Source of the DNA: a virus
Virus record (IMG/VR): IMGVR_UViG_3300023235_000008
Location: 124,001 to 188,000 of that record
Direction: 5' to 3' (one strand)
DNA length: 64,000 nucleotides
Shown here: piece after piece, positions 13,734 through 32,955 of the stretch
Position numbering within the stretch: position 1 is the first letter of the stretch
Layout: every line of letters begins with the position of its first letter
Notes under the pieces: generated by a model
Told to the model about the DNA's origin: nothing
The model's database searches: none
The model's input: only the letters and a program-made list of their open reading frames with translations
Translations under genes and position numbers: made by a program

Positions 13734-14741
13734 TTATTCCCAAGTATAATCGTATATATATTCTTTATCATCTACCGCAATCTTGTATACATCAAAATGA
13801 TTACCAATAGTATTCCATAAATCTTCAGGAGTTCCGCTATAATCTATTTTAGCGATAGGAAGATATCCTAAACTTAGTTTTGGGTCAGTATAAGATAAAT
13901 TGTTTTGTAGTATCCAAGATTTAAATCTATCAATTTCGCCAGTATGCCATTCGTGTTGTCCATAACGTACGTCACGACCAAATTCAATATCAAATTCACC
14001 TGAATAATATTCCAGTTGCGTGATAGCATCACATACCGTTTTGGTAAGTTCGGGGGCTTCTTCATCACGCCATACTTCAAATAATGTCTTGCCAATTTGT
14101 GCCCAATGCATATAAACATATCCAAATTTACGGTCGTAACCATTTTGAACAAATAACTTTCGGTGTTCATCGGTTAATTTATATCTTGGTGCATTTTTAA
14201 ACGATGTAATTTGGCTTGGTCTTATCCATTCGGGGCTTCTAATAGCTTTGCGTTGCGACAATACCAGACTTTCTACTTCATGACATAATAAATTTAATTG
14301 CTGTATAGCCCGTTTTGTTTTTTCTTGTGCTTCATTATATAACGGACTTATTTTACCCACTGTTCCTTGTAGGATTTCAAAATGATTATGTAAGCGATTC
14401 ATAATAAGATGTTTAATCGTAAGACCGAGCATCCATTCGCCCAACGGATACCCGTCATTAAAACGCACGGTGTCGGGCGTAAAGTAATCTTCGATTACAT
14501 AATCAATTGGATCGTTATTGATTGTTTGTATATGTGTGTTAAGCTCGTTACATAGATAATCCAAATCACGTGGCGTATTTGGGAATCCATGAAAACAAAA
14601 CCCTTTTTCAATACGATTCTTGTTTATCAATAGTTCTTTTAATGCGTGTTTCCAATCATGTGCCAATGGATTGTCCAATATAACAATAGGGAATGTTACT
14701 GTATTGCCATTGGATATATTCCTGTATGTTATTTCAATCAT
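13734..14741 (-). CDS. Unidentified protein, 335 aa
   Basis: The ATG at 14741 overlaps the previous TGA (ATGA); an in-frame ATG at 14756 is also possible. The sequence is His- and Trp-rich (FGRDVRYGQHEWHTGEID) with no catalytic signature I recognise. It sits between FW-box genes and the SGNH gene in the accessory operon, so it may act on the same product. Confidence 0.7.
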   Translation of the reverse strand: MIEITYRNISNGNTVTFPIVILDNPLAHDWKHALKELLINKNRIEKGFCFHGFPNTPRDLDYLCNELNTHIQTINNDPIDYVIEDYFTPDTVRFNDGYPLGEWMLGLTIKHLIMNRLHNHFEILQGTVGKISPLYNEAQEKTKRAIQQLNLLCHEVESLVLSQRKAIRSPEWIRPSQITSFKNAPRYKLTDEHRKLFVQNGYDRKFGYVYMHWAQIGKTLFEVWRDEEAPELTKTVCDAITQLEYYSGEFDIEFGRDVRYGQHEWHTGEIDRFKSWILQNNLSYTDPKLSLGYLPIAKIDYSGTPEDLWNTIGNHFDVYKIAVDDKEYIYDYTWE

Positions 14742-15049
14742 TTCTTCCATATCCATTTATCAGGTATTTCAGTTGCGCCATCTATCGGCGCTGGTTTATG
14801 GACTTTGCCAAACAATATCGGCGGCATAGCTGGATATTCTGCACCCCGCACCATTCCTGCGCAACGATAACCAAAACTTATGATATGTGGGCCTGCGTTT
14901 AACCCAACGCTTGAACCGTAGTAGTTATAATCTATCTTCGCAAATCGACAAGTTCGCTGCATATCGTCACGGGCACAGTTTTCGCACGTCCGATCCTTCA
15001 ACTCTGGTTGGGATAACATATCCCAAAACTCTTTTTTATTCTTTTTCAT
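14738..15049 (-). CDS. FW-box Cys-rich protein, 103 aa
   Basis: It begins MKKNKKEFWDMLSQPELKDR, matching the box shared by about 20 small proteins here, then CENC and two further Cys, and ends DKWIWKK, the W-x-W end of the Cys-rich subfamily. The Cys spacing suggests a metal-binding fold. Its start contains the stop of the upstream gene. Confidence 0.65.
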   Translation of the reverse strand: MKKNKKEFWDMLSQPELKDRTCENCARDDMQRTCRFAKIDYNYYGSSVGLNAGPHIISFGYRCAGMVRGAEYPAMPPILFGKVHKPAPIDGATEIPDKWIWKK

Positions 15050-15596
15050 TAATCATATTAATACCTAAGATGGCTTGACCTCTTGCATCAGTTAATGCAG
15101 TGTGATCGTGTGGAAACTTTTCAAACCAATTCTTTGGGTAATTCCTCTTTGCACTTTTTCTATAATCTAGACCTAATTTACCCGCTGCATAGCTTTTTAG
15201 ATCAAGTCCAGAAAAACCACACGGGTCTTCGCCAGCATACTTTATCAAATACCAATGATGAAACATAAAATCAAAACACGCTGGATACCCCATAAAAATA
15301 GGACGCTTTGGTAATACTTTTAAAAACTCCAAATACAGCTTCATACCACCTTCTGGCGATACGATGTTATGTCGGTGATGCGCCCACGCCTCTGGTTGTG
15401 TATCATTCAAGAACCACTCAAATGTTCCATCTTCACTTTCAATAGCAGGACCATCTTCTCTATGTCGTTCGCCATTCAAGTACCAAACTTTGGTGCCAGA
15501 TGTATATTCAATAGCAGGACCATCTTCTCTATGTAGTTCGCCATTCAAGAACCATTGTTTGTTACCATTTGCATCGGTATGAATTCCATTTTTCAT
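15036..15596 (-). CDS. YwqK-type repeat protein fused to a 3'-5' exonuclease-like C-terminus
   Basis: Residues 1-60 contain repeats of the kind WFLNGELHREDGPAIEY (MORN/YwqK type). The C-terminal part (FMGYPACFDFMFHHWYLIKY, then HTALTDARGQA) matches the second and third motifs of DEDDh exonucleases such as RNase T or RNase AS. The first motif (Asp-x-Glu) is missing; the repeats stand in its place. It is therefore probably not a working nuclease, or has a new role. It is coupled by ATGA to an upstream repeat protein. Confidence 0.6.
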   Translation of the reverse strand: MKNGIHTDANGNKQWFLNGELHREDGPAIEYTSGTKVWYLNGERHREDGPAIESEDGTFEWFLNDTQPEAWAHHRHNIVSPEGGMKLYLEFLKVLPKRPIFMGYPACFDFMFHHWYLIKYAGEDPCGFSGLDLKSYAAGKLGLDYRKSAKRNYPKNWFEKFPHDHTALTDARGQAILGINMINEKE

Positions 15597-15802
15597 GATT
15601 TTAACTTCCACCAGAACTGTTGTTCTTTAGTTAGCACATCTTCCATTTTTACTTTATTGTCATTCAAGTACCAATATTTGTCGCCATCTGCATATTCAAT
15701 CGCAGGACCATCTTCGCGATGTCGTTCGCCATTCATGTACCAATGTTTGTCGCCATCTGCATCGGTATGCATCCCATCTGTTCTCATGATTTCAAATCTC
15801 AT
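15593..15802 (-). CDS. YwqK/MORN-type repeat protein, 69 aa
   Basis: Two repeats of the type HWYMNGERHREDGPAIEYAD are followed by a tail ending LTKEQQFWWKLKS, which again contains an FW-like segment. Similar repeats occur in the next gene. In bacteria such repeats are found in immunity proteins and in phage proteins; the role here is unknown. The start ATG overlaps the stop of the frameshifted gene upstream. Confidence 0.6.
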   Translation of the reverse strand: MRFEIMRTDGMHTDADGDKHWYMNGERHREDGPAIEYADGDKYWYLNDNKVKMEDVLTKEQQFWWKLKS

Positions 15803-16024
15803 CTATTGGTTTCCACATGGGTAGTGATAATCCCGCTCGGTTCGCATATAGAGGATCGTGTCCGGGATTTTCTATACGAAAATAGCAAGTAGCAGTTCTT
15901 TTATTACTCACATGATAGGGTTCACCACATAGCGCGGCATGATACATGCGCAATTATCACAAGTTCTATCCAATACAGGAATAGACTTTAATGCTTCCCA
16001 AAACTGTTCTTTATTTAATGTCAT
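15792..16024 (-). pseudogene. FW-box Cys-rich gene broken by a frameshift
   Basis: From the ATG at 16024 the frame reads MTLNKEQFWEALKSIPVLDR and TCDNC, then stops early at 15908. Another frame, open from about 15947 to 15792, continues with more Cys (HAALCGEPYHVSN, RTATCYF). One added base near 15948 would join them into one protein of about 76 residues. Its start overlaps the end of the radical SAM gene before it. It may be a real mutation or a base-call error. Confidence 0.55.
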
Positions 16025-17360
16025 TCCAAAAATCCAAGGCGGCATCGTTATGTTTACCGAATATTTCAATCATAGTGATGGGTTGCATGCGAATACTTTC
16101 AAGATACTCAATACGCTTCTTACCTTTTCTACGACCTTCTTCAAAATCGTCTGGATACTTATTTTCCATAGTATCACGAGCAAGGAGATTTGTCAACACG
16201 TCAATGAGTGGTTTTTGATTACGGTCGGCTAATGGGGTCAACTCGTCTATCAACTCGTGGAGTATAGGATGCAGAACATCTTTTGGCAACCATAATGGAC
16301 ACATTGCCACACTGCTATCAAACTCAAAACAGACTTTAGACAAGATTTGGGTGTTATATTTTTTGGATAGGTGAAACATATTACGAACCTCGAATAAGCC
16401 GGGTGTTGTTAATGTGAAATCCAGTCTCATTTGGTTTGGTTTTTGTTGTGAAGTCAATCCTTCTTCAAAGTGTTTAATGAACTTTTGGTAGTCAAGTCCT
16501 GTTCGTATATATTCACCAATGACTCCTGTACCATCAATGCTCGCACACACTTGCCAATCCCTAAATGATTTCAACACGGTGAACAATGAAGCGTTTTTCG
16601 ATATACCGTGTCCTGACTTATTATAAATCTCACTTAGATTAGTGTTATAACGGGCATACACCTTTGACGAATGACCTGTGCGGACAAGAATCTCCATTGT
16701 TTCCCAATGCTCTTTGAACATAAGCGGTTCGCCACCAACCCAGTATATTTCTTCTAATGATTTATTAACTATGGCGTCACGTAACTCACCATACATATCA
16801 GATTGATTGTTTGCTAACTCTTTTTTATATTTCATCCAAGGGTGAAACTGGCCAGCATACTCGTCATTTTTTTTAACTTCTGATTCCCAAGATGAACTAA
16901 GCATCGGTCCACACATACGACATTTGAAGTTGCATAAGTTGCTGAACCGATAGTCAAAGCTTACAGGCTGGCCGTTGTAGTGCCCGTCTGGGTCCGTGTT
17001 TGCAATAACCTCATCCCACTTATCACCAAACAGGTGCTCAAAGTAATCGCGGTATACACTTGTGTTTAGAAGCTTACCAGTGCACACTTCACACTCAGGC
17101 AGAACTTCGTTGTTCATCATACGAAGCCTCACGCTTTTCATATGATCACTATTCCAATGTTCTTTGAGACTAGGTATAGAGAAAGTTTGCTGCTTTTCAA
17201 AAAAAGCCATTACTTCTTCTTTGGATTTGTTCTCCATGCTATCGTTAGTATCTATGTATTGTTTAAAGTTAGTAGATGGTTCGCGACTAGCACAACAGAG
17301 TCTGCGTTCACCTTGCGGTGAACAATAGCTGTGTACCCACGGGGCAATGCATTTGGTCAT
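16011..17360 (-). CDS. Radical SAM protein with twitch-like N-terminus (copy A)
   Basis: CNFKCRMC near residue 142 is the CxxxCxxC site for the 4Fe-4S cluster, and WVGGEPLMF is the GGEP SAM-contact motif. The N-terminus CIAPWVHSY, with LCC near residue 22, and ECEVCTG fit the N-terminal twitch layout of a radical SAM group common in marine phages. Substrate unknown. An FW-box gene overlaps its 3' end; its own C-terminus is also FWNDIK. Confidence 0.85.
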   Translation of the reverse strand: MTKCIAPWVHSYCSPQGERRLCCASREPSTNFKQYIDTNDSMENKSKEEVMAFFEKQQTFSIPSLKEHWNSDHMKSVRLRMMNNEVLPECEVCTGKLLNTSVYRDYFEHLFGDKWDEVIANTDPDGHYNGQPVSFDYRFSNLCNFKCRMCGPMLSSSWESEVKKNDEYAGQFHPWMKYKKELANNQSDMYGELRDAIVNKSLEEIYWVGGEPLMFKEHWETMEILVRTGHSSKVYARYNTNLSEIYNKSGHGISKNASLFTVLKSFRDWQVCASIDGTGVIGEYIRTGLDYQKFIKHFEEGLTSQQKPNQMRLDFTLTTPGLFEVRNMFHLSKKYNTQILSKVCFEFDSSVAMCPLWLPKDVLHPILHELIDELTPLADRNQKPLIDVLTNLLARDTMENKYPDDFEEGRRKGKKRIEYLESIRMQPITMIEIFGKHNDAALDFWNDIK

Positions 17361-17716
17361 AGATTTGCGACAATCCTTTTCAATTCTGCAATTTTAGGCT
17401 TATTCTTCTCTATCATGAAGTCGTGAAACCCATTATGAAACCACTTATAATTATTATAACATACATCGGTTACATTTTCCATACAAAGTTTTTGTATGCT
17501 ATCCAATATACCAATAAATCTTAAATCATCTTCGGTTTCTGATCGCAACTTACTTTCAAGGTCGCGGATTGGTACTATAAAATCGCCATCATAATCTGAT
17601 AACAGAATGCTTTCCCATCCCATCGCATACAGCATATTGCGGGTGGCGGTCGATGCAGATTTAGCTATCGGGACAACGCCAAGGTCTTTTTTCGGAGACA
17701 CTATTACTTCAATCAT
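17357..17716 (-). CDS. Sulfotransferase-like fragment, 119 aa
   Basis: VVPIAKSASTATRNML near residue 15 resembles the 5'-phosphosulfate loop that binds PAPS in sulfotransferases. The protein is much shorter than a full sulfotransferase (usually over 200 aa) and lacks a recognisable 3' phosphate motif, so it may be a reduced domain. An APS-kinase-like gene at 7564 could make its donor. ATGA overlaps at both ends show it belongs to the operon. Confidence 0.5.
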   Translation of the reverse strand: MIEVIVSPKKDLGVVPIAKSASTATRNMLYAMGWESILLSDYDGDFIVPIRDLESKLRSETEDDLRFIGILDSIQKLCMENVTDVCYNNYKWFHNGFHDFMIEKNKPKIAELKRIVANL

Positions 17717-17925
17717 ATCGGTTTTCTACTTGTGATTTTTTTCGCTATCAAAATGACCTCGTAATCTTCTGCTTCTTTTCTTCTTTTGAAATCTGCTGGG
17801 TCTTCACACAAACTATCAAAGAAATCTTTTTTATCACGGCATTCTATTTCTTCGGGGGTTATTTCTACCGCCGCTTCATCAATGCGTGTTAATAAATCTT
17901 TAAAAAAATCGCTATCGTCAGTCAT
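17713..17925 (-). CDS. FW-box-like small protein, 70 aa
   Basis: The ATG at 17925 gives MTDDSDFFKDLLTRI, with a second copy further on (KKDFFDSLCEDP); both follow the x-D-F-F/W-x-x-L pattern. The rest is highly charged and ends in a basic segment. Its start contains the stop of the upstream FW-box gene (ATGACTGA). Confidence 0.6.
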   Translation of the reverse strand: MTDDSDFFKDLLTRIDEAAVEITPEEIECRDKKDFFDSLCEDPADFKRRKEAEDYEVILIAKKITSRKPI

Positions 17926-18121
17926 TATATTTCCATTCCCATTTACTTCCAAGTTGTTGAAGTTGAAGTTTACACATAGTTCTTGCGTATTTGTTATCCG
18001 TTATCGGAAAGTCACAGTGCGACAAGTCATATGGATTGCCGTCCTCGGGCAAATACTTGCAACTTTCGCAAGACTTTACGCCATCCCATTCCAAGGCTTT
18101 CCAAAACTTATCTTTATTCAT
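17918..18121 (-). CDS. FW-box Cys-rich protein, 67 aa
   Basis: It begins MNKDKFWKALEWDGVK, followed by SCESC and two more Cys, and ends KWEWKYND. Four Cys suggest a zinc-ribbon-like fold. Its ATGAATAAA start contains the TAA stop of radical SAM copy B, so the two are coupled. Confidence 0.7.
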   Translation of the reverse strand: MNKDKFWKALEWDGVKSCESCKYLPEDGNPYDLSHCDFPITDNKYARTMCKLQLQQLGSKWEWKYND

Positions 18122-19298
18122 ATCCCATCGCTTTTGCTATGTGTGGATAAATGTCCGCAAAATCTTGCTTGCGTAATCTATCAGTTGCCTTCATATAGTT
18201 ACAAAATACTTTACCATCGCTGCCCGAACCTGCCTCAATGAAGTTAATAAGTTGTTGCCAGTTTTCATTGTATTGTGGCATGATATGCATACAATGATAC
18301 TTAATGTTATCAACCACTAGCCGTTTGCATTCCGGTGTCATATACTGGACATTCATATGCCATGGGTCGTGCAAATAGTTCCAATGGATTGAATCAAACT
18401 TACCCTCTTCTTCTGCCCACATCAATAACTGGTCAAGATAGAATACGTTTTGTATATTTATAGTGAAACAAAGTTGTCTGGTAAAAGTTGTGCTGTTAAT
18501 CCATGCTTTTTTAATAATAAATGAACGCACTTCATCCCATTTGGCACCATACCGTTCGTATTCAAATCGCTCACCAATATTATCAACAGAATATGCAAAC
18601 TCTACACTCTTAAAATCATATAGAAAATCATAATGGTGGACTTGTGTGCCATTAGTATTATAGTGCAACTCAATCGTATTTTTTACTTCGGTAGGAATAT
18701 TTGACAAGAAATCAATATGTTCTTTAATCATAAATGGTTCACCGCCAGTGAACTCAATGTACTTGATTTGTTCTACCTCAGTCATATTAATAAGGTTATC
18801 CCAAAAATGATGATTATCTTCTGGCCAGCGTCCTAGCTGAAGTTGCTTATATGCTAGATGTTCTTTGCCGCCGCCGTCACGTTCCATTTCTTCTTTAGCC
18901 CATTTCGAACTTGACCAAGAACCACAAATACGACATTTTAGATTACATTTGTTTCCAAGTTTCAAATCAAGAAACCACAAGCTATCGGGTTCAATGTCAG
19001 TGTAATCAATCTTATCCATAAGATGTTTTAGGCGAAATTGGGTATTCATACGCTTAGACATTTTGCCAGCAGATTCTTCTTCCCAACATCTCGAACACGT
19101 TTCGGGTTTCTCGCCATTCAAAAACTGTTGGCGTAGGTCTTTCATATAATCAGATTTATATGCGTCTTCGATAGTGTGTTTACGTAGGTCAATCCCCGGC
19201 ACTTCGTCACGAGCAAGACAGCACGGACGGCATCCGCCCATCGGCGTTGTTTCCATACTAATCCACGGTAACGGGCAAATATTTGGTAGTTTATTCAT
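18114..19298 (-). CDS. Radical SAM protein with twitch-like N-terminus (copy B)
   Basis: Near residue 8 ICPLPWISM, then GGCRPCC and CSRCW, form the N-terminal Cys cluster pattern. CNLKCRICG near residue 118 is the radical SAM site, and FTGGEPFM the GGEP motif. The enzyme should open SAM by one-electron chemistry; the target is unknown. It overlaps an FW-box gene at each end. Confidence 0.85.
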   Translation of the reverse strand: MNKLPNICPLPWISMETTPMGGCRPCCLARDEVPGIDLRKHTIEDAYKSDYMKDLRQQFLNGEKPETCSRCWEEESAGKMSKRMNTQFRLKHLMDKIDYTDIEPDSLWFLDLKLGNKCNLKCRICGSWSSSKWAKEEMERDGGGKEHLAYKQLQLGRWPEDNHHFWDNLINMTEVEQIKYIEFTGGEPFMIKEHIDFLSNIPTEVKNTIELHYNTNGTQVHHYDFLYDFKSVEFAYSVDNIGERFEYERYGAKWDEVRSFIIKKAWINSTTFTRQLCFTINIQNVFYLDQLLMWAEEEGKFDSIHWNYLHDPWHMNVQYMTPECKRLVVDNIKYHCMHIMPQYNENWQQLINFIEAGSGSDGKVFCNYMKATDRLRKQDFADIYPHIAKAMGYE

Positions 19299-19531
19299 TT
19301 ATTAAGGTATCCCAAAACGCTGCCTTCTTTGATTTCTTCTTGCGGTCTATGTATATTTTTTTCATAAAAAATCTTCCTGCATTCACAACACGCTATTTCT
19401 TGTTCAATAATCATATATGGTTCTGAATCTTTGATTTTGACTTCTTTGGTTTCTCGGTTTACAACGAAACCGGCACCGCACCCACATCGCAACGGATTAC
19501 TTAAAGCATTCCAAAACTCGTCTTTATTTAT
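19295..19531 (-). CDS. FW-box Cys-rich protein with no standard start codon, about 78 aa
   Basis: The conserved box INKDEFWNALSNP precedes CGCG and CCEC. At the position where relatives have ATG this gene has ATA, overlapping the TAA stop of radical SAM copy C (ATAA instead of ATGA). No ATG, GTG or TTG lies between the upstream in-frame stop and the box; a TTG at 19492 would remove the box. An ATA, ATT or CTG start must be assumed. Confidence 0.55.
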   Translation of the reverse strand: MNKDEFWNALSNPLRCGCGAGFVVNRETKEVKIKDSEPYMIIEQEIACCECRKIFYEKNIHRPQEEIKEGSVLGYLNK

Positions 19532-20838
19532 TTCCAGTCTTTTAATCTCATTAACTCAGGAAACACATCATAAAAGTGTTCATTTCTTAGTGTATCTAGT
19601 TTACCAATCGTTTCGTTAAACTTGGGGATTAAATATGTATTATCTGTCCCATTCATAAAGTTCAATGCCGATTTAAAACCATTTGTCGCACGATGAAAAT
19701 CATCGCTCGGCTCAATGAATGCGATATGTTCATTGTATATTTCTTCGACTTCCTTCTTCATATCCTGTGGCAAAATATCCATACGGTATTCGTCTGGACC
19801 TTGTAGTATATTGACGTTCCAATCCTTGCCACGTACCAATCCAAGTTTAATCCACTCTCGATGAAAATCAGGAATATGATATGCGTTCATAACACTCATT
19901 GTCGAACTAACATAAAAATCCACATCAGGACAAACCCGCATCATTTCCTCACGATTAAGAACAACCTGTTTCCATTTTGTACCATACCGCATAAGCTCGC
20001 CTCGTTCATACGAAGCATCAAGACTTGCTCCAATACTCACACTGTCAAACTCTTTCCACATTTCAAGAACGTTTTCGCTCTTGTATTTCAACTCAGTAAA
20101 GTTAGTATTATATGATAGTTTAACATCATTTCGCCCTTGGCGCAATAGTTCTTTTAACACCTTATAATGTTCTTCCATCATTAGGGGTTCGCCACCAGCA
20201 AAATATACCTCCTGAATATACGGAATATGTGGCAATAGTTGTTCCCACGCATCGGTTTGATATCGACCAGCGTAAGTAACATTTTCCGCATCCTTTGGCA
20301 ACCAGTTATATTTCTTCTTTTCTTTAACCCATTTCGAACTAAAGATATCACCACACGAACGACATGCTAAGTTACATAGATTTGAAAATCGTATGTCATA
20401 ATAGCGTAGTTTAAAATCACCCGTCGTCCCATCGTTATTAATATCAACGTCTTTAATATTATGACCGAATGACTGATTGGCTGTATTGCGCATACTAAAG
20501 AAACCATTGCGTTCTTGTTCGTAGCATTTAGTGCATTCGTCGCATGATTTTTCATTTACCATATTGCTCCGAATGGTATTCATTTTATCATTATGGAAAA
20601 TCTCTTCCATTGTATTATCTCGCATTGAACCAACAGGGTTTTCGTATGTTGCTAGACAACAAGGATAAGCCTTACCATCTGGATATGCGTGTAGGTGTAC
20701 CCATGGCAACATACAAAACGTCTTACTATCCATAAGTAGCTCACGCTCGGTATCGGTTAACTCTTCTATTTTTATGTTAATAGGGGCACGATTACCATAA
20801 TCGTATTTTGTGTAATAATCGTCCTCGTCTTTACTCAT
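19528..20838 (-). CDS. Radical SAM protein with twitch-like N-terminus (copy C)
   Basis: KTFCMLPWVHLHAYPDG, then AYPCC and CDECTKC, form the N-terminal Cys pattern. CNLACRSCG near residue 157 is the cluster site and FAGGEPLMM the GGEP motif. Length (436 aa) is similar to the other copies. Its stop overlaps the ATA of the next FW-box gene. Confidence 0.85.
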   Translation of the reverse strand: MSKDEDDYYTKYDYGNRAPINIKIEELTDTERELLMDSKTFCMLPWVHLHAYPDGKAYPCCLATYENPVGSMRDNTMEEIFHNDKMNTIRSNMVNEKSCDECTKCYEQERNGFFSMRNTANQSFGHNIKDVDINNDGTTGDFKLRYYDIRFSNLCNLACRSCGDIFSSKWVKEKKKYNWLPKDAENVTYAGRYQTDAWEQLLPHIPYIQEVYFAGGEPLMMEEHYKVLKELLRQGRNDVKLSYNTNFTELKYKSENVLEMWKEFDSVSIGASLDASYERGELMRYGTKWKQVVLNREEMMRVCPDVDFYVSSTMSVMNAYHIPDFHREWIKLGLVRGKDWNVNILQGPDEYRMDILPQDMKKEVEEIYNEHIAFIEPSDDFHRATNGFKSALNFMNGTDNTYLIPKFNETIGKLDTLRNEHFYDVFPELMRLKDWK

Positions 20839-21113
20839 CTAAACTTTCCATTTATTCTAAACTTATAATCATTATACCATTTACTCCCACACCGCTCACA
20901 TGTTGGCTGAAGGGTGCCCATGTCAGGTTGTTTTTGATGCCACGTCCAATCATTCGGGTATTTTGGTTGTGCTTTGTATACAGTATACGGAAAAGTAAAT
21001 ATCGGATGACCGTTTTCGCACTCAGCCGTTTCACCACCATACGCATATACCTTACTATGGTCTATTGACAATGCTTCAATAAAAGATTCTTTGCTTATAG
21101 CGTTTTGTACCAC
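20835..21113 (-). CDS. FW-box-related Cys protein, 92 aa (GTG or ATA start)
   Basis: A GTG at 21113 gives a full frame, but alignment of the box (ISKESFIEAL) with its relatives puts the start at an ATA at 21098 that overlaps the upstream TAA (ATAA). Here Trp of FW is replaced by Ile. One Cys near residue 30 and a CERCG pair near the C-terminus suggest metal binding. It follows radical SAM copy D. Confidence 0.6.
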   Translation of the reverse strand: MVQNAISKESFIEALSIDHSKVYAYGGETAECENGHPIFTFPYTVYKAQPKYPNDWTWHQKQPDMGTLQPTCERCGSKWYNDYKFRINGKFR

Positions 21114-22432
21114 GTGACAAGTTCCTCTGGAAATGTTTCTTCAAATAGTTTACCGCGGCGAATGTCATACTGTGTATAAAACTGTTTGAAATCGTGCTGC
21201 CTTGCTTCTACATCAATGGGGGCTGGTTCTCGTAGATAATCAATCAATCGTTCAATGTGATCTATTTCATGTGCGTGTAATAGTTTTGGGTCTTGTTTCA
21301 TTAACCATCCACCAAGGGCTGCACGGCGGGTTGAACGGATTTCTTCGGGAAGAACCAAGCAAGATTGAAAGCTCGGGAATCTAAGTATATTTAGTGTAAA
21401 ACTAGGTTGTTTACCCACAATCCAATGCTTTTGTCTTAACATAATAAGATGGTCAAGCATATCAGTTAGTGTCCACAAACACAATGCATTAACCGTGCAC
21501 ATAACACTGACATCATTGAATGTGCCATCGGCAAGAAGCGCATCCAAGCGTGATGTCCACTGATCGTAATCCAATCCATCACGAATATATTCGGCGTGTG
21601 CGTCTGTCGCTTCGCAACTAGTATACAATGTGCCGAAGTTAATAACATAATCATTGATAAGTCTATTAAATAATACGTCCGAACATCCAAGGTTTGAGTT
21701 CATTGAAATAGGTGGATACTTGAAAACGCTATCAGCACTATTTTTATAATCAGCATAAATCATATCAAGCAGTTTCCAAAAGTCCTGCGACATGGTTGGT
21801 TCACCGCCCGTAATACGCAACTCCTGCAACGATCCCTTTAAGTCGCTTTCCCACCACTTAAAGAACGCATCGACATATTGATTTGGTTCACCTACCTTGA
21901 AAGGTTGTGAAGCAGCATGTGTATGCGTAAAGTGATTGCGTCCGTCAGTTACTAAGCCTTCGTATGGACCGTTTTCTTTGATATCTTTTGCCCACGTTGT
22001 AGAAAACGCAGGGTTACAATACGAACAAGCAAAGTTACAAGTACGATCAAATGATATCTCTAGCGTCTTTAAGTCAACGTCTTGTTGTGGATTTGTTTTG
22101 TATGCAGTAAGGTTTTCCGACCAATCATAAATCTTTGATTTGTATACACGGTCAGGAACAGCATCAGTTTCCATATCCATCACTTTCCAACAGTAGTCGC
22201 AACCTTTAGGACGTTCACCACGCACCATTAACTCACGGTCGTGTTTCTTTTCCTTGGTGTTATGTAATAGCTTTGGATTGTTTACAACATCGTCAGATAT
22301 TTGATGTGCAGGGGGATGGTGACACGATGTAGTTTGACCGCTGCCTAACCATATAGTAGCGTTATACCATTTCGCCGAACAAAAGCTTGGCGATAGTTTA
22401 TCCAATACTTTTTTGTAATCTTTATCGTTCAC
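21095..22432 (-). CDS. Radical SAM protein with twitch-like N-terminus (copy D)
   Basis: FCSAKWYNATIW and SCHHPPAHQI near the N-terminus, and CDYCW, give a variant of the twitch Cys pattern. CNFACSYC near residue 133 is the radical SAM site; ITGGEPTMS is the GGEP motif. It is most like copy E in layout and they form a subgroup with SCxHPP instead of PCC. Confidence 0.85.
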   Translation of the reverse strand: MNDKDYKKVLDKLSPSFCSAKWYNATIWLGSGQTTSCHHPPAHQISDDVVNNPKLLHNTKEKKHDRELMVRGERPKGCDYCWKVMDMETDAVPDRVYKSKIYDWSENLTAYKTNPQQDVDLKTLEISFDRTCNFACSYCNPAFSTTWAKDIKENGPYEGLVTDGRNHFTHTHAASQPFKVGEPNQYVDAFFKWWESDLKGSLQELRITGGEPTMSQDFWKLLDMIYADYKNSADSVFKYPPISMNSNLGCSDVLFNRLINDYVINFGTLYTSCEATDAHAEYIRDGLDYDQWTSRLDALLADGTFNDVSVMCTVNALCLWTLTDMLDHLIMLRQKHWIVGKQPSFTLNILRFPSFQSCLVLPEEIRSTRRAALGGWLMKQDPKLLHAHEIDHIERLIDYLREPAPIDVEARQHDFKQFYTQYDIRRGKLFEETFPEELVTWYKTL

Positions 22433-22679
22433 TGAACATTATTCCAATCCGTTTCTGTTCTTTTTTGTATTGTAGAACGCTATGAAAATGGCTTTTCCAC
22501 GATTCTTGTTTTTCAGGATCGCTTACAATCTCGTCACAATCCTTACAAACTTCACATAACTTATAAATCATATACAGCTTTTTTTGTTTGCCTACCGTAA
22601 CTGTTGTGTTGGCGGCTTTGATGAGGATTGTAGGATGAATGCATTTAGTCAAACCATTCCAAAACTGTTCCTTATCCAT
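22422..22679 (-). CDS. FW-box Cys-rich protein, 85 aa
   Basis: The ATG at 22679 gives MDKEQFWNGLTKCIHP. CEVCKDCD near the middle suggests metal binding; the C-terminal third is basic. The start codon region (ATGGATAAG) contains the TAA stop of the 38-aa gene before it, and the gene overlaps copy D downstream. Confidence 0.65.
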   Translation of the reverse strand: MDKEQFWNGLTKCIHPTILIKAANTTVTVGKQKKLYMIYKLCEVCKDCDEIVSDPEKQESWKSHFHSVLQYKKEQKRIGIMFSER

Positions 22680-24142: not shown

Positions 24143-25053
24143 CAGTTCTCCCGCTTTCTGATTATATCAATCTCGGTTGTCATAAAGTCTTCCTGTACGT
24201 GATTCTTTTTATAGAAGTGTTTAAAAAACTTTGATTGGTCACTATCATATCGCACCAATGGGATATTCAATCGTGACTTAACAATATCAATGGTTGCTTT
24301 GATATATCTATCATCGTTATTATTCGCATAACCATCGTATTGCATTTTCAATACGTCGAAGTCTTGAACGCCCGTATAATCCCAATCGGTTAGCATAACG
24401 GCGTGTAATCCGAATAAAGCACCATCCATTGCTGAAACACCAAACTCGGCGTCGGCTCCTGTATTCAACCATACCATAAGATTATCAAGGTTCTTATCGT
24501 GAACCATTTGCTCAAACTCTGGTAGTGTAGGACGAACACCTTTATTCAGACACATCTTTACGCCTTCACGAAACCCTGCTCTCCAAGCATTGAACTCACT
24601 TTGATTGGGATGCGTAGTTCCGTAAACATTCCACATAGCGTGATAGTTAGGGTCATAGCAAAACTCTACGTTGTTTTCATCTGACCCATCACTATTTTCG
24701 TGCGTTCGCATATTCATAATGAAATCACGATGCCAAATACTAATACCGCCGTTGCCGTATCTCAATCCATTTATTGCATTGATTGCCTTCCAACGATATG
24801 CACTTGGTACATCAGGTGCTTCAAATGTTTGATTAAAGAAGTTTGGATCAGGCATATGGTCACCATCAATCAACACAAACCATTCGGTTTCACTGATTTC
24901 AGCTGCCGCTTTGTGTGCGGAATCACTGCCTTTTACACCATCGACACGATTTGCCCATGGCACCATATTCTGGATTTCTACCCAAAACTCTTCTTTTTTT
25001 GGTTCGTCAAATGTTAGATAGACCACATCAAGGTCTGCAACATCAATCTTCAT
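24139..25053 (-). CDS. Glycosyltransferase-like protein, 304 aa
   Basis: DVVYLTFDEPKKEEFW at the N-terminus, FVLIDGDHMPDPNFF with a candidate Asp-x-Asp metal site near residue 62, and GLRYGNGGISIWHRD point to a GT-A type transferase. It matches the C-terminal domain of the protein at 9962. The donor and acceptor are unknown. The KKEEFW segment may be a chance likeness to the FW box. Confidence 0.65.
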   Translation of the reverse strand: MKIDVADLDVVYLTFDEPKKEEFWVEIQNMVPWANRVDGVKGSDSAHKAAAEISETEWFVLIDGDHMPDPNFFNQTFEAPDVPSAYRWKAINAINGLRYGNGGISIWHRDFIMNMRTHENSDGSDENNVEFCYDPNYHAMWNVYGTTHPNQSEFNAWRAGFREGVKMCLNKGVRPTLPEFEQMVHDKNLDNLMVWLNTGADAEFGVSAMDGALFGLHAVMLTDWDYTGVQDFDVLKMQYDGYANNNDDRYIKATIDIVKSRLNIPLVRYDSDQSKFFKHFYKKNHVQEDFMTTEIDIIRKRENW

Positions 25054-25240
25054 ATTCTACCCAAAAGTCTTTTTCAAAATCAAACGTATATTGAATGTCG
25101 GTAGTAGTATCTCGGTATACGTGAATACCAATGCCGATATTCTTGTCTGCCTGTAAATAACTCTTATTAGGCTGCGGTGGCATTTGTAATACTTGCCAAA
25201 ACTTATCTCTGCTTATGTTCAATCCATTTATCCTTTTCAT
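25043..25240 (-). CDS. FW-box protein, 65 aa
   Basis: An ATG at 25240 is used here. The box (ISRDKFWQVLQMPPQP) begins eight codons later at an ATA, so the true start could be there. The tail (YRDTTTDIQYTFDFEKDFW) follows the D-x-x-T...W pattern of fibre-like modules. It overlaps its neighbour by 38 bases if the ATG is used. Confidence 0.6.
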   Translation of the reverse strand: MKRINGLNISRDKFWQVLQMPPQPNKSYLQADKNIGIGIHVYRDTTTDIQYTFDFEKDFWVEYED

Positions 25241-25418
25241 AATTAAAAACCCATTTTAAACCCGTCTGTATATCTACCCAAATAGTAACCATAGGAAGTT
25301 CTTTATTATATATACCGAGCTGATATACCGTCAACATACTTTCTTCGCTCGGCTGTGGGGGTTCGCCTAACCCTTCCCAAAAATCTTCTTTACTTAACAC
25401 AAATCCATTCTTTTCCAT
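25203..25418 (-). CDS. FW-box protein, 71 aa
   Basis: An ATG at 25418 gives MEKNGFVLSKEDFWEGLGEP; a GTG at 25400 would start just before the box. The tail (WVDIQTGLKWVFNYEKDKW) is clearly related to that of the next protein, so the pair are recent paralogues. The TAA of the upstream gene lies inside the box. Confidence 0.6.
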   Translation of the reverse strand: MEKNGFVLSKEDFWEGLGEPPQPSEESMLTVYQLGIYNKELPMVTIWVDIQTGLKWVFNYEKDKWIEHKQR

Positions 25419-25539
25419 TCCAAATCTCCAATCCACCTGTGTCGTTGTTATAAAATACGGAACCCACTGGGCGGGTCGGCGGTGGTGCCTTCAATGCTTC
25501 CCAAAAATCTTCTTTATTCAAAGTCTTTTCGGTATTCAT
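25390..25539 (-). CDS. FW-box protein, 49 aa
   Basis: An ATG at 25539 gives MNTEKTLNKEDFWEALKAPP; a TTG at 25521 (TTGAATAAA, with the upstream stop inside) would start exactly at the box. The tail SVFYNNDTGGLEIWNGKEW is like small repeated modules in phage fibre proteins, including the one encoded at 30838. Confidence 0.65.
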   Translation of the reverse strand: MNTEKTLNKEDFWEALKAPPPTRPVGSVFYNNDTGGLEIWNGKEWICVK

Positions 25540-25888
25540 AGAAGTCTTCGGTGCCGATGAAGTATGGGTTATTTTTTCTAGTGCCATACATTCCAGTCTC
25601 CGATTTGACAAGGTTGTATGTTTGTGGCTTAGATGGCGTTTTAATCTCGCCATCAATGATTTTATTATCACTTCTTATACTTTCCCATACGCTGCGCTCA
25701 ACGATAATGAAATCACCTTCGGGTGGTTCAACATTGTATTCAATAGCGACTTGTTTAAGGATATCGCCAGTTTCCTTGTTATAGTATAACCTATATTCAG
25801 GCGTAAAGTCAATAACTGGTTCAGCATCAAATAGAACTAATCCTTCTAAAAAGTTACTCAAAATCTTCCTCTCTATATTCTTCTCCAA
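25514..25888 (-). CDS. Box-related protein, 124 aa
   Basis: An ATG at 25888 or a TTG at 25861 (TTGAGTAAC, containing the upstream TAA) can serve as start. The latter gives LSNFLEGLVLFDAEP, a divergent box. The body (YRLYYNKETGDIL, then DFIIVERSVWESIRS) has a D-x-x-T-G-x-x-L turn seen in other tails here. No function is known. Confidence 0.55.
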   Translation of the reverse strand: MEKNIERKILSNFLEGLVLFDAEPVIDFTPEYRLYYNKETGDILKQVAIEYNVEPPEGDFIIVERSVWESIRSDNKIIDGEIKTPSKPQTYNLVKSETGMYGTRKNNPYFIGTEDFYEYRKDFE

Positions 25889-25997
25889 ATATCTCTTTTA
25901 ATCCCGGCATTAACTGTCGCAATACAGCAGCACGGCGAATAGCCTCTTTACTTTTCACTGGATTTTTTAAAGTTTTCCAAAACTCATGTTTATTCAT
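25854..25997 (-). CDS. FW-box protein, 47 aa
   Basis: It begins MNKHEFWKTLKNPVKSKEA and is basic in the middle (EAIRRAAVLRQLMPG) and acidic at the end. The ATG overlaps the TGA of the broken gene upstream (ATGA). It has no Cys. Function is unknown. Confidence 0.65.
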   Translation of the reverse strand: MNKHEFWKTLKNPVKSKEAIRRAAVLRQLMPGLKEIFGEEYREEDFE

Positions 25998-26170
25998 TTC
26001 TTGTTCCATTCCCAGTGCTTACGATCTCCCGTTGCACTCACTAATATACTCACACAATCCACGTGTCCCGGCGCTGTTGCGTGTTTACAACTAAAACACG
26101 TTTTATCGTTTCCTAATAGAAACCAAAACTAGTTATCGTTTCCTAATAGAAACCAAAACTCTTCTTTACT
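25994..26170 (-). pseudogene. FW-box Cys-rich gene disrupted by a 30-base duplication
   Basis: The frame SKEEFWFLLGND is followed by an in-frame TAG and then a repeat of FWFLLGND leading into KTCFSCKHATAPG and HWEWNKK. Removing one copy of the duplication restores a normal box-CxxC-WEW protein of about 50 residues. No start codon lies at the box (TGT at that position), so translation is doubtful. Confidence 0.6.
26103..26160. repeat. Tandem direct repeat, two 28-base copies, period 30
   Basis: Copies at 26103-26130 and 26133-26160 are identical. They lie inside the broken FW-box gene and add an in-frame stop. Confidence 0.9.
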
Positions 26171-27020
26171 ACAATCGTTGTTCGTATCGTCTGATGAGTT
26201 CGTCACTGCAAAAATCCTTCTGTTGATAATGGAATGGAAACATTTGATAGTATCCTCCCACAATAAAATCCATATCTTCCGTCAACGCCCAACTCACCAT
26301 ATCCGTCCACTGATTGGAATGAAAGCCCTGTAGTTCTGGCTTCATATGAACAAAGGTCGGTTGAACACCCGGCATATAACAACGTTCTTCACCAATCATC
26401 AATGCAGCTAACGCATATACTTCATCGGTTGTTGGGCGTTCAATACGGCAGTTCTTTAAAATATTATCCCGATACATTGACCAGTTCTCAAATATTTCTT
26501 TAGCCGCCATAAAAAAGTCAGCCATTGTCTTTGAATATCTGAAATAACTAAAACCATTATATGTATTTAGAAGGCTGTTATCATCGAATACTTTTCGGAA
26601 TCGGCGGTCAGTAATAAGGTTGCCACGATAATCAACTACGTCCGTAGTTATACAAATATCCTTGGCTCTCATATGATCCCACCAATGTGAAACATCACGT
26701 GTGAAAATCATATCAACATCAAGGTTAACTGTCTCTTTAAATGGCGTAGCGTGGTACAGTTTCCAAGCATTAGCCAACTTCCATTCATCGCCAGCAGCGG
26801 CGTCACCGAAAGGTATATCAACAATGTAATCAAATACTTTGCGATGTTTATCGGTGATTTGCGCTTTAGTCTTTTCATCAACGGCGATAGCATACTTGTT
26901 AATGCGTTGTGTTGCCTTGATAGAAAGGGCTTGTAAATATGCTATACGCAAGTAATCAACATCGCTGTTCTGAACAAAAGCAAAATATCCTTGCTGGTCT
27001 TTGAACTGTTCTTTATTCAT
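26169..27020 (-). CDS. Glycosyltransferase-like protein with box-like start, 283 aa
   Basis: The ATG at 27020 gives MNKEQFKDQQGYFAFVQNSD, the start of the FW box without the Trp. NLDVDMIF near residue 97 is a GT-A Asp-x-Asp motif, and GDEWKLANAWKL precedes it as in nucleotide-sugar transferases. It may transfer a sugar to a phage or host product made in this operon. Its TAG stop is followed by the broken FW-box gene. Confidence 0.65.
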   Translation of the reverse strand: MNKEQFKDQQGYFAFVQNSDVDYLRIAYLQALSIKATQRINKYAIAVDEKTKAQITDKHRKVFDYIVDIPFGDAAAGDEWKLANAWKLYHATPFKETVNLDVDMIFTRDVSHWWDHMRAKDICITTDVVDYRGNLITDRRFRKVFDDNSLLNTYNGFSYFRYSKTMADFFMAAKEIFENWSMYRDNILKNCRIERPTTDEVYALAALMIGEERCYMPGVQPTFVHMKPELQGFHSNQWTDMVSWALTEDMDFIVGGYYQMFPFHYQQKDFCSDELIRRYEQRL

Positions 27021-27216
27021 TGTTCCATTCCCATTTATCATTGCCGCCAGCTTGACGTTGATCTACCATACCGCATCTAGTGCATCTATCGCACACGTCA
27101 AGATCATTGTAGTCCGCATCCCTCCCGATAATATGCAAAGTATCTTCCCATTTACAGTTGCCGCATACTCTTTCAGCAGGTTCACATAAAGTTTTCCAAA
27201 ACTCCTGTTTATTCAT
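27013..27216 (-). CDS. FW-box Cys-rich protein, 67 aa
   Basis: The ATG at 27216 gives MNKQEFWKTLCEPAERVCGN. VCGNC and VCDRCTRCG provide five Cys, and the end is DKWEWNNE. The ATGAATAAA start contains the upstream TAA. It is one of five adjacent Cys-rich paralogues. Confidence 0.7.
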   Translation of the reverse strand: MNKQEFWKTLCEPAERVCGNCKWEDTLHIIGRDADYNDLDVCDRCTRCGMVDQRQAGGNDKWEWNNE

Positions 27217-27424
27217 TTTCACCATCCCAATGCCAATGGTCAGCTGCTCGTCTGATTTCCCGCGGGGGTATACCCGATATAGCACGAACGCAAGTATACT
27301 TAACGTGTAGACTACATTCCATGCCAAGGCTAGGTCCAGCGTCCATCATATGCGAACAGTTATTACACGTATGTGTCGATGGTTCACGCAGTGTGTCCCA
27401 AAACTTTTCTTTATCTTTATTCAT
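27209..27424 (-). CDS. FW-box Cys-rich protein, 71 aa
   Basis: The ATG at 27424 gives MNKDKEKFWDTLREPSTHTC, then CNNC and further Cys, and the end is HWHWDGENE. The start contains the upstream TAA. The Cys pattern suggests metal binding. Confidence 0.7.
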   Translation of the reverse strand: MNKDKEKFWDTLREPSTHTCNNCSHMMDAGPSLGMECSLHVKYTCVRAISGIPPREIRRAADHWHWDGENE

Positions 27425-27632
27425 ATTTTCCATTCCATTCATATATACTATAATGACGGACGTATGTGTAATCGCCGTTTTCTTTTTCTCGTTTTAACGC
27501 CATCATAGCATCATTAAAGTTACAGGAAAAACAAGGTGACGGTGCATTTTTTGATTTTCCTTCATGAATACAAGTGTTACAACTCGGCTTTGGGCTTTTT
27601 AATGTTTCCCAAAACTTTTCTTTATCGTTCAT
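27417..27632 (-). CDS. FW-box Cys-rich protein, 71 aa
   Basis: The ATG at 27632 gives MNDKEKFWETLKSPKPSC. CNTC and CFSC are two CxxC knuckles about 18 residues apart, as in a zinc ribbon. It ends IYEWNGKYE. It overlaps both neighbours by 8-11 bases. Confidence 0.7.
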   Translation of the reverse strand: MNDKEKFWETLKSPKPSCNTCIHEGKSKNAPSPCFSCNFNDAMMALKREKENGDYTYVRHYSIYEWNGKYE

Positions 27633-27819
27633 CGACACCATTCCATTCCCAATAATCTTCAGTAATAAAGAAACCTTCAGTAAAGAAACGAAACCTACGA
27701 TGCTTAATACAATCTGCGTCCAGTGAACACCCTTGGTCTACCAAATGAATACAGTTTCGGCAGTTATGGTGTGTTGGTTCACGCAATGCTTTCCAAAACT
27801 TTTCTTTATCTTTATTCAT
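27622..27819 (-). CDS. FW-box Cys-rich protein, 65 aa
   Basis: MNKDKEKFWKALREPTHHNC is followed by CRNC and two more Cys, and the end is DYWEWNGVDER. The gene starts six bases after the previous stop rather than overlapping it, an exception in this array. Confidence 0.7.
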   Translation of the reverse strand: MNKDKEKFWKALREPTHHNCRNCIHLVDQGCSLDADCIKHRRFRFFTEGFFITEDYWEWNGVDER

Positions 27820-27825
27820 ATAAGA

Positions 27826-28086
27826 TTATGGAAAGACAGGCAGGGGTTCATCGTCGTCGGTGTCGTCTTTGCCATTCCATTTCCAATAACTGTATTCGCC
27901 GTGCTGTTCACTCACGTGTGCGCTTTTACAACGACCACAAAATGCACTACCATTCACATTACCAAAATCGTGATACGAATATCTTTCGGGAGAATAGAAA
28001 CCGGGACGTGTACAAGTACCACATGATTTTGCAGGTGTTTTTAAATCTTGCCAGAACTTTTCTTTATCATCGAGGTTTTTATACAT
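27826..28086 (-). CDS. FW-box Cys-rich protein, 86 aa
   Basis: The box (LDDKEKFWQDLKTPAKSC) starts at residue 5. CGTC and CGRC are two CxxC pairs. The W-x-W end (YWKWNGKDD) is followed by an extra acidic tail ending LPVFP. It follows a glycosyltransferase-like gene by two bases. Confidence 0.7.
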   Translation of the reverse strand: MYKNLDDKEKFWQDLKTPAKSCGTCTRPGFYSPERYSYHDFGNVNGSAFCGRCKSAHVSEQHGEYSYWKWNGKDDTDDDEPLPVFP

Positions 28087-28088
28087 TA

Positions 28089-28970
28089 TTATTTTTTCTT
28101 TCCGGTGCCTGATAACTGCGTCGGTATATATGGACAGTAATAAAATCCTTCATCCATCACTTCCGTTTTACCACGTAACCCATCCCAAAACAGTTTCTTT
28201 CTATTAAGAATATCAATCTGTTTTATAAGCGAAGGTTTATTCATAACGTGTAAATCAAGACCATTTACTTTGGTTTGATATTCCTTGCCATTATTATCAT
28301 ATTCAATGACGACCGTGCCATCCTGCCTAATATCTACCACTTCTTCTTGTGTTCCGACCGAAGCCAATGGAAACGTGAAATGGTTTTCTGTATCATTATA
28401 TCCCGAAAGCAACTGTAATGCAATACTTAATGCAAAATCATTTCGATATGGGGTGGGTCTGAAGTTGAATAAATGCCCGTAATAATGATAGTTTTGGCGA
28501 ACTTCTTGCATCATATCAAATACCGACTTGGAAAACTCAGTCTTTTTAAAATAGATACACGTTGCCCAACGCATAGGAAAACTTGTCTTGCTCATCATTC
28601 TATCAGATGCAAATGTATTTGTGCCCGTAACGTCATATACCTTATCGGCGCATTGAAACTCATGCGCTGAACCGAAATATTTCTTCAAGTTATCTGACAT
28701 AATCAAATAGTCAGCATCAAGTAATAATGTTTCATCATACGGCGAAAGGGAATATGCGGTCATGCGATCCGTATTATGCCAATCCACTTGTTCATACGTA
28801 TTATCACGCCATATAAATGTTCGACTGTTAGCGTTTGTCGGATTTCCAGTGATAATCGTGGTCGGAATATTCAAATGATGAAGTATTAGCTGGCGATTAA
28901 ACTCGGCAATCTTTTCATAATCAATCTGATCATTATTGTAAGCGAAGATTAATGCGCCCTTTGTTGTCAT
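28089..28970 (-). CDS. Glycosyltransferase-like protein with C-terminal FW-like segment, 293 aa
   Basis: ETLLLDADYLIM near residue 80 gives the GT-A Asp-x-Asp motif, and the layout (NRQLILHHL...TTIITG) is that of a nucleotide-sugar transferase. The C-terminus carries LNRKKLFWDGLRGKTE, an internal relative of the FW box, then YYCPYIPTQLSG. It may have gained this segment by fusion with a box gene. Substrates are unknown. Confidence 0.65.
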   Translation of the reverse strand: MTTKGALIFAYNNDQIDYEKIAEFNRQLILHHLNIPTTIITGNPTNANSRTFIWRDNTYEQVDWHNTDRMTAYSLSPYDETLLLDADYLIMSDNLKKYFGSAHEFQCADKVYDVTGTNTFASDRMMSKTSFPMRWATCIYFKKTEFSKSVFDMMQEVRQNYHYYGHLFNFRPTPYRNDFALSIALQLLSGYNDTENHFTFPLASVGTQEEVVDIRQDGTVVIEYDNNGKEYQTKVNGLDLHVMNKPSLIKQIDILNRKKLFWDGLRGKTEVMDEGFYYCPYIPTQLSGTGKKK

Positions 28971-29191
28971 TGTTTATGCTCAATCATAGATTTATGATAT
29001 TTGTGAGACATATTGAAAAAGAATAAATCCTTTTCACTCTTGAACTTTAAATAATACATTCCGCCCCAATGACCTTCAATATCAAATGACCATTTAAAAC
29101 GATCAAACGTTTGAAGGTTCACAAGCGTTATGTGCCACTCGTCTATATCGTTAAGGGCTGAAAAGAACTCAAGTTTATGCCATTTGCTCAT
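28967..29191 (-). CDS. Box-related small protein, 74 aa
   Basis: It begins MSKWHKLEFFSALNDIDEW, with FF instead of FW. The C-terminal part (FKSEKDLFFFNMSHKYH) matches the C-terminus of the protein at 7139. ATGA overlap at the start. Function is unknown. Confidence 0.6.
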   Translation of the reverse strand: MSKWHKLEFFSALNDIDEWHITLVNLQTFDRFKWSFDIEGHWGGMYYLKFKSEKDLFFFNMSHKYHKSMIEHKQ

Positions 29192-29490
29192 TTAGGAAAG
29201 TTCCTTAAAATGTTCGCCATATCTTTAATCGTGTCGTGTTTTTCTTTTGCCTCTACTTCTTCGGGACGAATGATACGATAGGTTTCAAGCTGAATACGAT
29301 AATATTCTAAGACTTCACTGTTTGAATATCGCCCCGAATAGTCGTAACCATCGGGGTCCAGCTTTTCAAGTTCGGCAATATGCTTTAGAATATTTTCTTT
29401 TGCTCGTTCTTCAATCAACGAATAAGGCGGTGGCAATGGACACTGTAATGCATTCCAGAACTCTTCTTTAGATAAATCATCTTCAATCAT
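29188..29490 (-). CDS. FW-box protein, 100 aa
   Basis: MIEDDLSKEEFWNALQCPLP carries the box at residue 6, followed by a Pro run and a long charged helical tail without CxxC. The start overlaps the previous stop (ATGA). It is the second gene of the operon. Confidence 0.65.
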   Translation of the reverse strand: MIEDDLSKEEFWNALQCPLPPPYSLIEERAKENILKHIAELEKLDPDGYDYSGRYSNSEVLEYYRIQLETYRIIRPEEVEAKEKHDTIKDMANILRNFPK

Positions 29491-32937: not shown

Positions 32938-32943
32938 TTGTAG

Positions 32944-32951
32944 TATTTATC
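32944..32951 (-). promoter_or_regulatory. Near-match late promoter box
   Basis: GATAAATA on the minus strand (seven of eight bases of TATAAATA), six bases upstream of the ATG at 32937. Confidence 0.4.
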
Positions 32952-32955
32952 ATTC

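What the first reader, a model, noticed from the sequence alone, without database searches (positions are those of the whole stretch)
14738..29490. A large family of small ORFs sharing a start box x-N/S-K-E/D-x-F-W-x-x-L-x-x-P
About 20 small genes between 14.7 and 29.5 kb begin with the same 10-13 residue box and then diverge completely: some tails are Cys-rich, some fibre-module-like, some charged. A conserved short N-terminus with variable remainder is the layout of leader/core peptide families. It could also be a docking tag for a common partner, or a DNA-level cassette joint. The box is conserved at base level too (AATAAAGAnnAnTTTTGG).
Basis: partly seen in the sequence, partly recalled or inferred. 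Interest (0 to 1): 0.95.

Follow-up and report, generated by a model that had tools for sequence, protein, structure and literature searches.

The report
Shuffling phage protein family, shared start
A large virus of bacteria carries more than forty small genes that begin with the same short helix, most of which continue into a cysteine-rich, probably metal-binding body; this unnamed protein family is duplicated, deleted and re-joined in natural virus populations, and the shared helix may be a common docking handle.

Summary
Sixteen clear box ORFs lie at 14.7-29.5 kb (not ~20), plus degenerate copies. The whole 230-kb virus record holds 46 matches to the box motif, against 0-3 for scrambled versions. 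The statement that the tails 'diverge completely' is wrong. Most box ORFs continue into one module, CxNC...C...C...WxW[DN]G, giving a small, probably zinc-binding protein family with no match in Pfam, PHROGs, NCBIfam, PADLOC or the PDB. A minority carry unrelated tails, so the box is portable.

The box is constrained as protein: a capped amphipathic helix with free synonymous codons at L and P. Most of its base-level sameness follows from that and from genome-wide AATT avoidance. At DNA level, box genes form start/stop-overlapping cassettes that recombine. Two near-identical contigs differ by a 197-bp loss exactly between two box starts. A syntenic relative has a nine-match array where this phage has one copy. 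One cassette core is nearly identical in an otherwise unrelated phage.

Leader/core peptide: not supported. Docking helix: plausible but inferred. Cassette joint: supported as a consequence of the box. The closest known case is the ~35-copy zinc-ribbon expansion of Bacillus phage G, not detectably homologous. Function is unknown; host takeover or counter-defence is my guess.

The parts
14738..15049 (-). box gene, Cys type (MKKNKKEFWDMLSQP...CENC...WIW)
15908..16024 (-). box gene, short Cys type (NKEQFWEALKSIP...CDNCAC), overlaps the end of the radical-SAM gene 16011-17360
17918..18121 (-). box gene, Cys type ending KWEWKYND, overlaps the end of the radical-SAM gene 18114-19298
17713..17952 (-). 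degenerate box ORF (TDDSDFFKDLL and DKKDFFDSL), starts in the TGGGAATGGAA joint of the gene before it
19295..19528 (-). box gene NKDEFWNALSNP with atypical Cys tail and no ATG/GTG/TTG start, directly after the radical-SAM stop
20835..21113 (-). degenerate box ORF (ISKESFIEALS...CERCGSKW) after the radical-SAM gene 21095-22432
22422..22679 (-). box gene DKEQFWNGLTKC with CEVCKDCD tail
25043..25240 (-). box gene SRDKFWQVLQMPP, non-Cys tail ending FEKDFWVEYED
25203..25418 (-). box gene SKEDFWEGLGEPP, non-Cys tail ending YEKDKWIEHKQR; starts inside the gene before it
25390..25539 (-). box gene NKEDFWEALKAPP with fibre-module-like tail GSVFYNNDTGGLEIWNGKEW
25854..25997 (-). box gene NKHEFWKTLKNP, charged non-Cys tail
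25996..26170 (-). broken box cassette: 30-bp tandem duplication of half the box with an in-frame TAG, followed by a complete Cys tail CFSCKH...HWEWNKK
26169..27041 (-). glycosyltransferase-like ORF whose start is the cassette joint plus half box (ATGAATAAAGAACAGTTC)
27013..27216 (-). box gene NKQEFWKTLCEP...CGNCKW...CDRC...WEWNNE; core nearly identical in an otherwise unrelated phage (L046)
27209..27424 (-). box gene DKEKFWDTLREP...CNNC...HWDGENE
27417..27632 (-). box gene DKEKFWETLKSP...CNTC...YEWNGKYE
27622..27819 (-). box gene DKEKFWKALREP...CRNC...WEWNGVDER (AlphaFold query 2)
27826..28086 (-). box gene DKEKFWQDLKTP...CGTC...WKWNGKDD
29188..29490 (-). box gene SKEEFWNALQCP, long charged non-Cys tail
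51539..51871 (+). box gene SREEFWETLSTD, non-Cys tail, outside the stated interval
53858..54034 (+). most compact Cys-type member, MAFEKEDFWKALCQPEKRTCFNC...CNGC...WEWDGKTHDI (AlphaFold query 1)

Best explanation
The box ORFs are one lineage-expanded family of small phage proteins. Shown: an N-terminal box of about 12 residues constrained at protein level and readable as a capped amphipathic helix (N/D/S/T cap, K, E/Q, x, F, W, x, x, L, x, x, P), followed in most members by CxNC...C...C and a closing WxW[DN]G; many genes packed with start codons overlapping the previous stop; and duplication, deletion and re-tailing between related contigs, sometimes with breakpoints in or just before the box. 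Inferred: the Cys module binds one zinc ion; the FW..L helix, being kept on unrelated tails, is a shared docking handle to a common partner (a host or phage complex) while the variable tails add specificity; the arrays form a fast-evolving set of host-takeover or counter-defence adaptors. Box DNA similarity lets cassettes recombine in frame, so the conserved protein tag also serves as the joint of the cassette system.
For: Chance control 46 vs 0-3. Family profile: 43 matches in this record and 1-15 in other virus records, with a conserved Cys/WxW pattern. Synonymous codons vary at L and P while the residues stay; K/F/W/L columns pN/pS 0.03 vs about 0.9 next to the box. N-cap residues N/D/S/T at position 1 in 86%; AlphaFold puts a helix on the box in two members. 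Box retained on at least nine non-Cys tails in this genome. Stop/start overlap or close abutment in 39 of 47. 197-bp deletion between two identical 30-bp box starts in L029 vs L040; 75-bp exact tandem box duplication in L045; 30-bp in-window duplication. One box gene here vs a nine-match array at the same place in a syntenic relative. Nearly identical cassette core in an otherwise unrelated phage. Box plus joint at the start of a glycosyltransferase-like ORF.
Against: No partner, expression or metal binding is shown. AlphaFold confidence is low (pLDDT 65-68) and Foldseek finds nothing. The helical moment of the box is only slightly above shuffled (0.38 vs 0.30 +- 0.15). F and W were fixed by the search, so their invariance is partly ascertainment. 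Contigs are metagenomic, so small indels and the L029 deletion could in part be assembly errors. Docking and host takeover are inferences; the box may simply pack on its own domain.
Confidence: 0.5

Rival explanations
1. The box is only the first helix of one folded zinc-ribbon-like domain; F, W and L form its hydrophobic core with the WxW strand. Non-Cys box proteins are chimeras or decaying copies, and there is no common docking partner.
For: Box, CxNC and WxW[DN]G co-occur with short, fairly constant box-to-CxNC spacing. The second AlphaFold model has a helix, a strand after CxNC and a strand at WEW. Broken copies are common.
Against: At least nine box proteins without the Cys module keep the box, several of full length with their own tails. 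Model confidence is low.
Confidence: 0.3
2. The proteins are small zinc-ribbon DNA- or RNA polymerase-binding regulators, like the proposal made for the phage G expansion; the box helix contacts polymerase and each tail chooses targets.
For: Same genomic pattern, dozens of small CxxC...C proteins in one large phage; Iyer et al. suggested transcription factors or DNA-binding proteins for phage G (PMC7824862).
Against: No homology detected to the phage G family in the stretch tested; no DNA-binding family match.
Confidence: 0.15
3. DNA-level cassette joint only: the box is kept because it is a recombination or start/stop junction and its protein meaning is incidental.
For: Recombination breakpoints at the box; the first codons carry stop codons for upstream genes (ATGA, xxT-AAR) and N at position 1 is always AAT; E and K before F strongly use GAG/AAG.
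Against: L uses six codons and P four; residue-level rules (N-cap, FW..L) hold while DNA varies; the GAG/AAG bias is largely shared by all E/K-F pairs in the genome, which avoids AATT.
Confidence: 0.08
4. Leader/core peptide (RiPP) family matured by the neighbouring radical-SAM enzymes.
For: Conserved N-terminus; in the window each of five radical-SAM genes is followed closely by a box or degenerate-box ORF.
Against: The enzymes are N_Twi_rSAM, far below cut-off for peptide maturases; no RRE/PqqD domain in the three enzymes scanned against Pfam; most box genes in this record and in relatives have no radical-SAM gene nearby; the core pattern is conserved, not variable; no cleavage motif.
Confidence: 0.04

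Closest known systems
Zinc-ribbon (ZnR) expansion of Bacillus phage G, ~35 copies (Iyer et al. 2021, PMC7824862; e.g. YP_009015343.1)
   Same: Dozens of small CxxC...C proteins in one large phage genome, with a shared short terminal motif and function unknown.
   Different: In the phage G members read here the shared motif is C-terminal (YWKENDRYLAKxLSK-like) and the knuckle is CPIC; no profile match to this family in the 42-kb stretch tested; start/stop cassette overlap and box recombination were not tested there.
PeSL / mobile regulatory cassettes of T4-type phages (Arbiol et al. 2010, doi 10.1093/gbe/evq006, seen only as a citation in PMC4503421; content from my own knowledge)
   Same: Short repeated DNA lets accessory small genes be shuffled in T4-like phages.
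   Different: PeSLs are intergenic promoter/stem-loop elements; here the repeat is inside the coding start, genes overlap, and promoter- and terminator-like sites are not enriched.
'ORFanage' region of cyanophage S-PM2 (Puxty et al. 2015, PMC4503421)
   Same: A block of ORFan genes in a marine T4-like phage, lost by deletion.
   Different: The abstract and passages read describe ORFans without a shared start motif or family; the deletion there is one large block.
RiPP precursor families with conserved leaders (general knowledge)
   Same: Conserved N-terminus followed by a variable part.
   Different: The variable part has a conserved Cys/WxW scaffold; no dedicated maturase; no cleavage site.

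Membership tests
Bacillus phage G ZnR expansion | Sequence homology to gp32 (YP_009015343.1) family | tested here: not met
   Profile of this family vs six-frame ORFs of the 42-kb phage G stretch holding gp32: best E 0.66, not at gp32; tblastn of gp32 in phages hits phage G only
Bacillus phage G ZnR expansion | Dozens of small CxxC...C paralogs in one phage | tested here: met
   43 profile matches in the 230-kb record
PeSL-type mobile regulatory cassettes | Intergenic early promoter plus stem-loop terminator at each joint | tested here: not met
   59 promoter-like sites vs 51.0 +- 7.1 and 11 terminator-like vs 10.1 +- 3.2 in shuffles; genes overlap or abut in 39 of 47. Only sigma-70-type promoters were scanned.
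RiPP leader/core precursor | Dedicated, co-located maturation enzyme | tested here: inconclusive
   Five N_Twi_rSAM genes interleave in the window, but most other box genes and relatives lack a nearby radical-SAM gene
RiPP leader/core precursor | Hypervariable core after a conserved leader | tested here: not met
   CxNC, further Cys and WxW[DN]G conserved after the box
RiPP leader/core precursor | Cleaved or modified peptide in infected cells | not testable with these tools
   needs mass spectrometry
Zinc-binding small protein | Four Cys in two pairs at plausible spacing | tested here: met
   First Cys pair invariant, third and fourth Cys in at least 90% of alignment A2
Zinc-binding small protein | Match to a known zinc-ribbon family or fold | tested here: not met
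   No Pfam/PHROGs/NCBIfam/PADLOC family; best PDB sequence hit is a zinc finger MYM-type protein at E 0.12; Foldseek none, on low-confidence models

The most novel reading that the evidence does not exclude
A phage-encoded modular effector system: one conserved docking helix (FWxxL) carried by dozens of small proteins, each with a different recognition tail, encoded as start/stop-overlapping cassettes in which the docking tag's own DNA is the recombination site, so that new tails are put behind the same tag by homologous recombination, with cassettes exchanged between different phages.
Probability: 0.3. Interest if true: 0.85.

Novelty: new variant of a known kind. Interest (0 to 1): 0.58.

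Why it matters
If right, this is a natural, combinatorial family in which a protein docking tag and a recombination joint are the same 30 bases. That would explain how some large phages evolve many small effectors quickly, and the box peptide would be a direct bait for the common target. Even in the plain reading it is an unannotated family with over forty members in one genome and no entry in Pfam, PHROGs or NCBIfam, with the phage G zinc-ribbon expansion as an independent parallel.

Tried and rejected
Searching cultured phages with one member and with a hand-made consensus: nothing beyond chance. A first degenerate pattern hit only an unrelated GIY-YIG-like gene. The box-like hit at 24999 inside a glycosyltransferase-like ORF is rejected as a member. 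I first took the strong AAG/GAG use before TTTTGG for a DNA-level signal; the genome-wide control showed AATT avoidance explains most of it. The copy at 26170, first noted as a frameshift, is a 30-bp in-frame tandem duplication with a TAG. The L023/L027 675-bp difference is not box-to-box; one breakpoint lies just after a box and the other is not in a box.
Full report
What was checked. The window is bases 124001-188000 of a 230,059-base virus record. A tblastn of the baseplate-wedge-like protein at 46059-49550 gives large T4-like phages at about 36% identity or less (Agrobacterium phage Atu_ph07, Sinorhizobium phage Phosso, Salicola phage SCTP-2), so this is a divergent large T4-like myovirus. 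Small minus-strand ORFs from 14.7 to 29.5 kb do begin with x-[NDST]-K-E-x-F-W-x-x-L-x-x-P. The DNA pattern gives 27 hits against 6.1 +- 2.3 in shuffles. The protein motif occurs 46 times genome-wide against 0-3 for scrambled motifs. I count 16 clear members in the stated interval. Others lie at window 51575 and 53867 and in genome regions 1-13 kb and 21-41 kb.

The tails. Aligned, the majority show one module: box, a few residues, C-x-N-C, then two further Cys at variable spacing, then a closing W-x-W-[DN]-G. A profile of this module finds 43 places in the record. A minority of box ORFs have other tails: fibre-module-like (25518), two tails ending EKD-[KF]-W-[IV]-E (25394, 25213), and charged tails (25994, 29472 and copies elsewhere). 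No Pfam, PHROGs, NCBIfam or PADLOC family and no PDB sequence is matched convincingly. Two AlphaFold models are of low confidence (pLDDT 68 and 65) but both place a helix on the box; Foldseek finds nothing.

Protein or DNA constraint. In 76 distinct boxes, P12 uses its four codons at near-genomic rates and L9 uses all six codons, though TTA/TTG are favoured and CTT avoided. K/F/W/L columns have pN/pS about 0.03, while columns 10-11 and 13-16 are near 0.9 (F and W were fixed by the search pattern, so part of this is ascertainment). Position 1 is a helix-cap residue (N, D, S or T) in 86%. This reads as a capped helix kept for its residues. The striking use of AAG/GAG before TTTTGG (49 of 52 for K and E) looked like a DNA signal. 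However, the whole genome avoids AATT (762 observed, 1789 expected) and prefers G-ending codons before TTT everywhere, which explains most, not all, of it.

Cassette anatomy. Of 47 box ORFs in the record, 39 start within about 30 bases of an upstream stop, most overlapping by 4 or 8 bases (ATGA; ATGAATAA). The first box codons thus contain the previous gene's stop in another frame: TGA in the start, TAA in xxT-AAR. That fits N at position 1 being always AAT (17 of 17). In tandem copies the WEWNG codons of one gene (TGGGAATGGAATGG) lie directly before the next start. There is no excess of promoter- or terminator-like sites.

Recombination in nature. (a) L040 and L029 are about 99% identical contigs. 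L029 lacks 197 bp exactly between two identical 30-bp stretches, AATGAACAAAGATAAGCAGAAGTTTTGGGA, the starts of two neighbouring box genes. (b) L045 carries an exact 75-bp tandem copy of joint + box + CYN. (c) In the window itself, 26170 has a 30-bp tandem duplication of half a box with a stop between. (d) L027, 70-93% identical in DNA to this phage over shared genes, has an array giving nine profile matches between two shared blocks where this phage has about 190 bp and one degenerate box gene. L022, which shares collinear blocks of 70-83% identity, has one family match in its whole 94.5-kb record. (e) L046 shares with the record almost no DNA beyond an 85% match of 171 bp covering one cassette and short box matches; within its CGNC...CTR core only 3 of 90 bases differ, while box and tail differ. 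(f) The glycosyltransferase-like ORF at 27041 begins with joint plus half box. All contigs are metagenomic, so any single case could be an assembly fault; the agreement of several cases is the argument.

Distribution. Two collection scans of IMG/VR with variable-gap box + CxNC patterns, and one with the joint + box pattern, found the family in several distinct virus records, 1 to 15 copies each apart from near-copies of this phage. Cultured phages gave no match to one member or to a consensus. Of 84,980 bacterial and archaeal genomes, none gave a convincing member.

Interpretation. Shown: one expanded, recombining family with a protein-level start helix. Inferred: zinc binding by the Cys module; a shared docking role for the FW..L helix, because unrelated tails keep it; a role as host-takeover or counter-defence adaptors, from position among variable accessory genes and rapid turnover. 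The leader-peptide idea fails on the conserved body and on the type and placement of the radical-SAM genes. The closest described case is the ~35-copy zinc-ribbon expansion in Bacillus phage G (PMC7824862). I read several members of it, and they show a different conserved motif at the C-terminus and no profile match in the stretch tested.

Noticed in passing
whole record G000: AATT (762 vs 1789 expected from trinucleotides) and GATC (565 vs 1103) are strongly under-represented, as if the phage avoids restriction sites.
   Followed up: partly
window 15036-15802; L008 and L017 (both ends of the record); L045 1-1200: A second multi-copy family, MORN-like repeats (NGxxHREDGPAIEYAxGxKxWYLNG), whose members end ...PKEQFWWKLKS; 75-85% similar DNA occurs in a different phage.
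   Followed up: no
window 16011-24142 (minus strand): Five N_Twi_rSAM radical-SAM genes in a row (NF033640, E 1e-77 to 1e-117), each followed closely by a box or degenerate-box ORF, beside a NodU-type carbamoyltransferase and glycosyltransferase-like genes.
   Followed up: partly
genome 36611-36895 (L009:17611-17895): One ORF with two boxes in tandem, NKQQFFKALSEP then NKEEFWQALSQP.
   Followed up: no
genome 71365 (L011:14365) and L023:1032: Box-like EKE-x-FW-x-A-[ML] in the interior of a conserved protein in two related phages; unclear whether homologous to the box.
   Followed up: no
window 19295-19528: A box ORF directly after a radical-SAM stop with no ATG, GTG or TTG start; either a rare start codon or a dead copy.
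   Followed up: no
L125:26153-28126 and 32804-33106 (Bacillus phage G): Phage G ZnR copies share a C-terminal YWKENDRYLAKxLSK-like motif, a second case of a short shared terminal tag on an expanded Cys family.
   Followed up: partly
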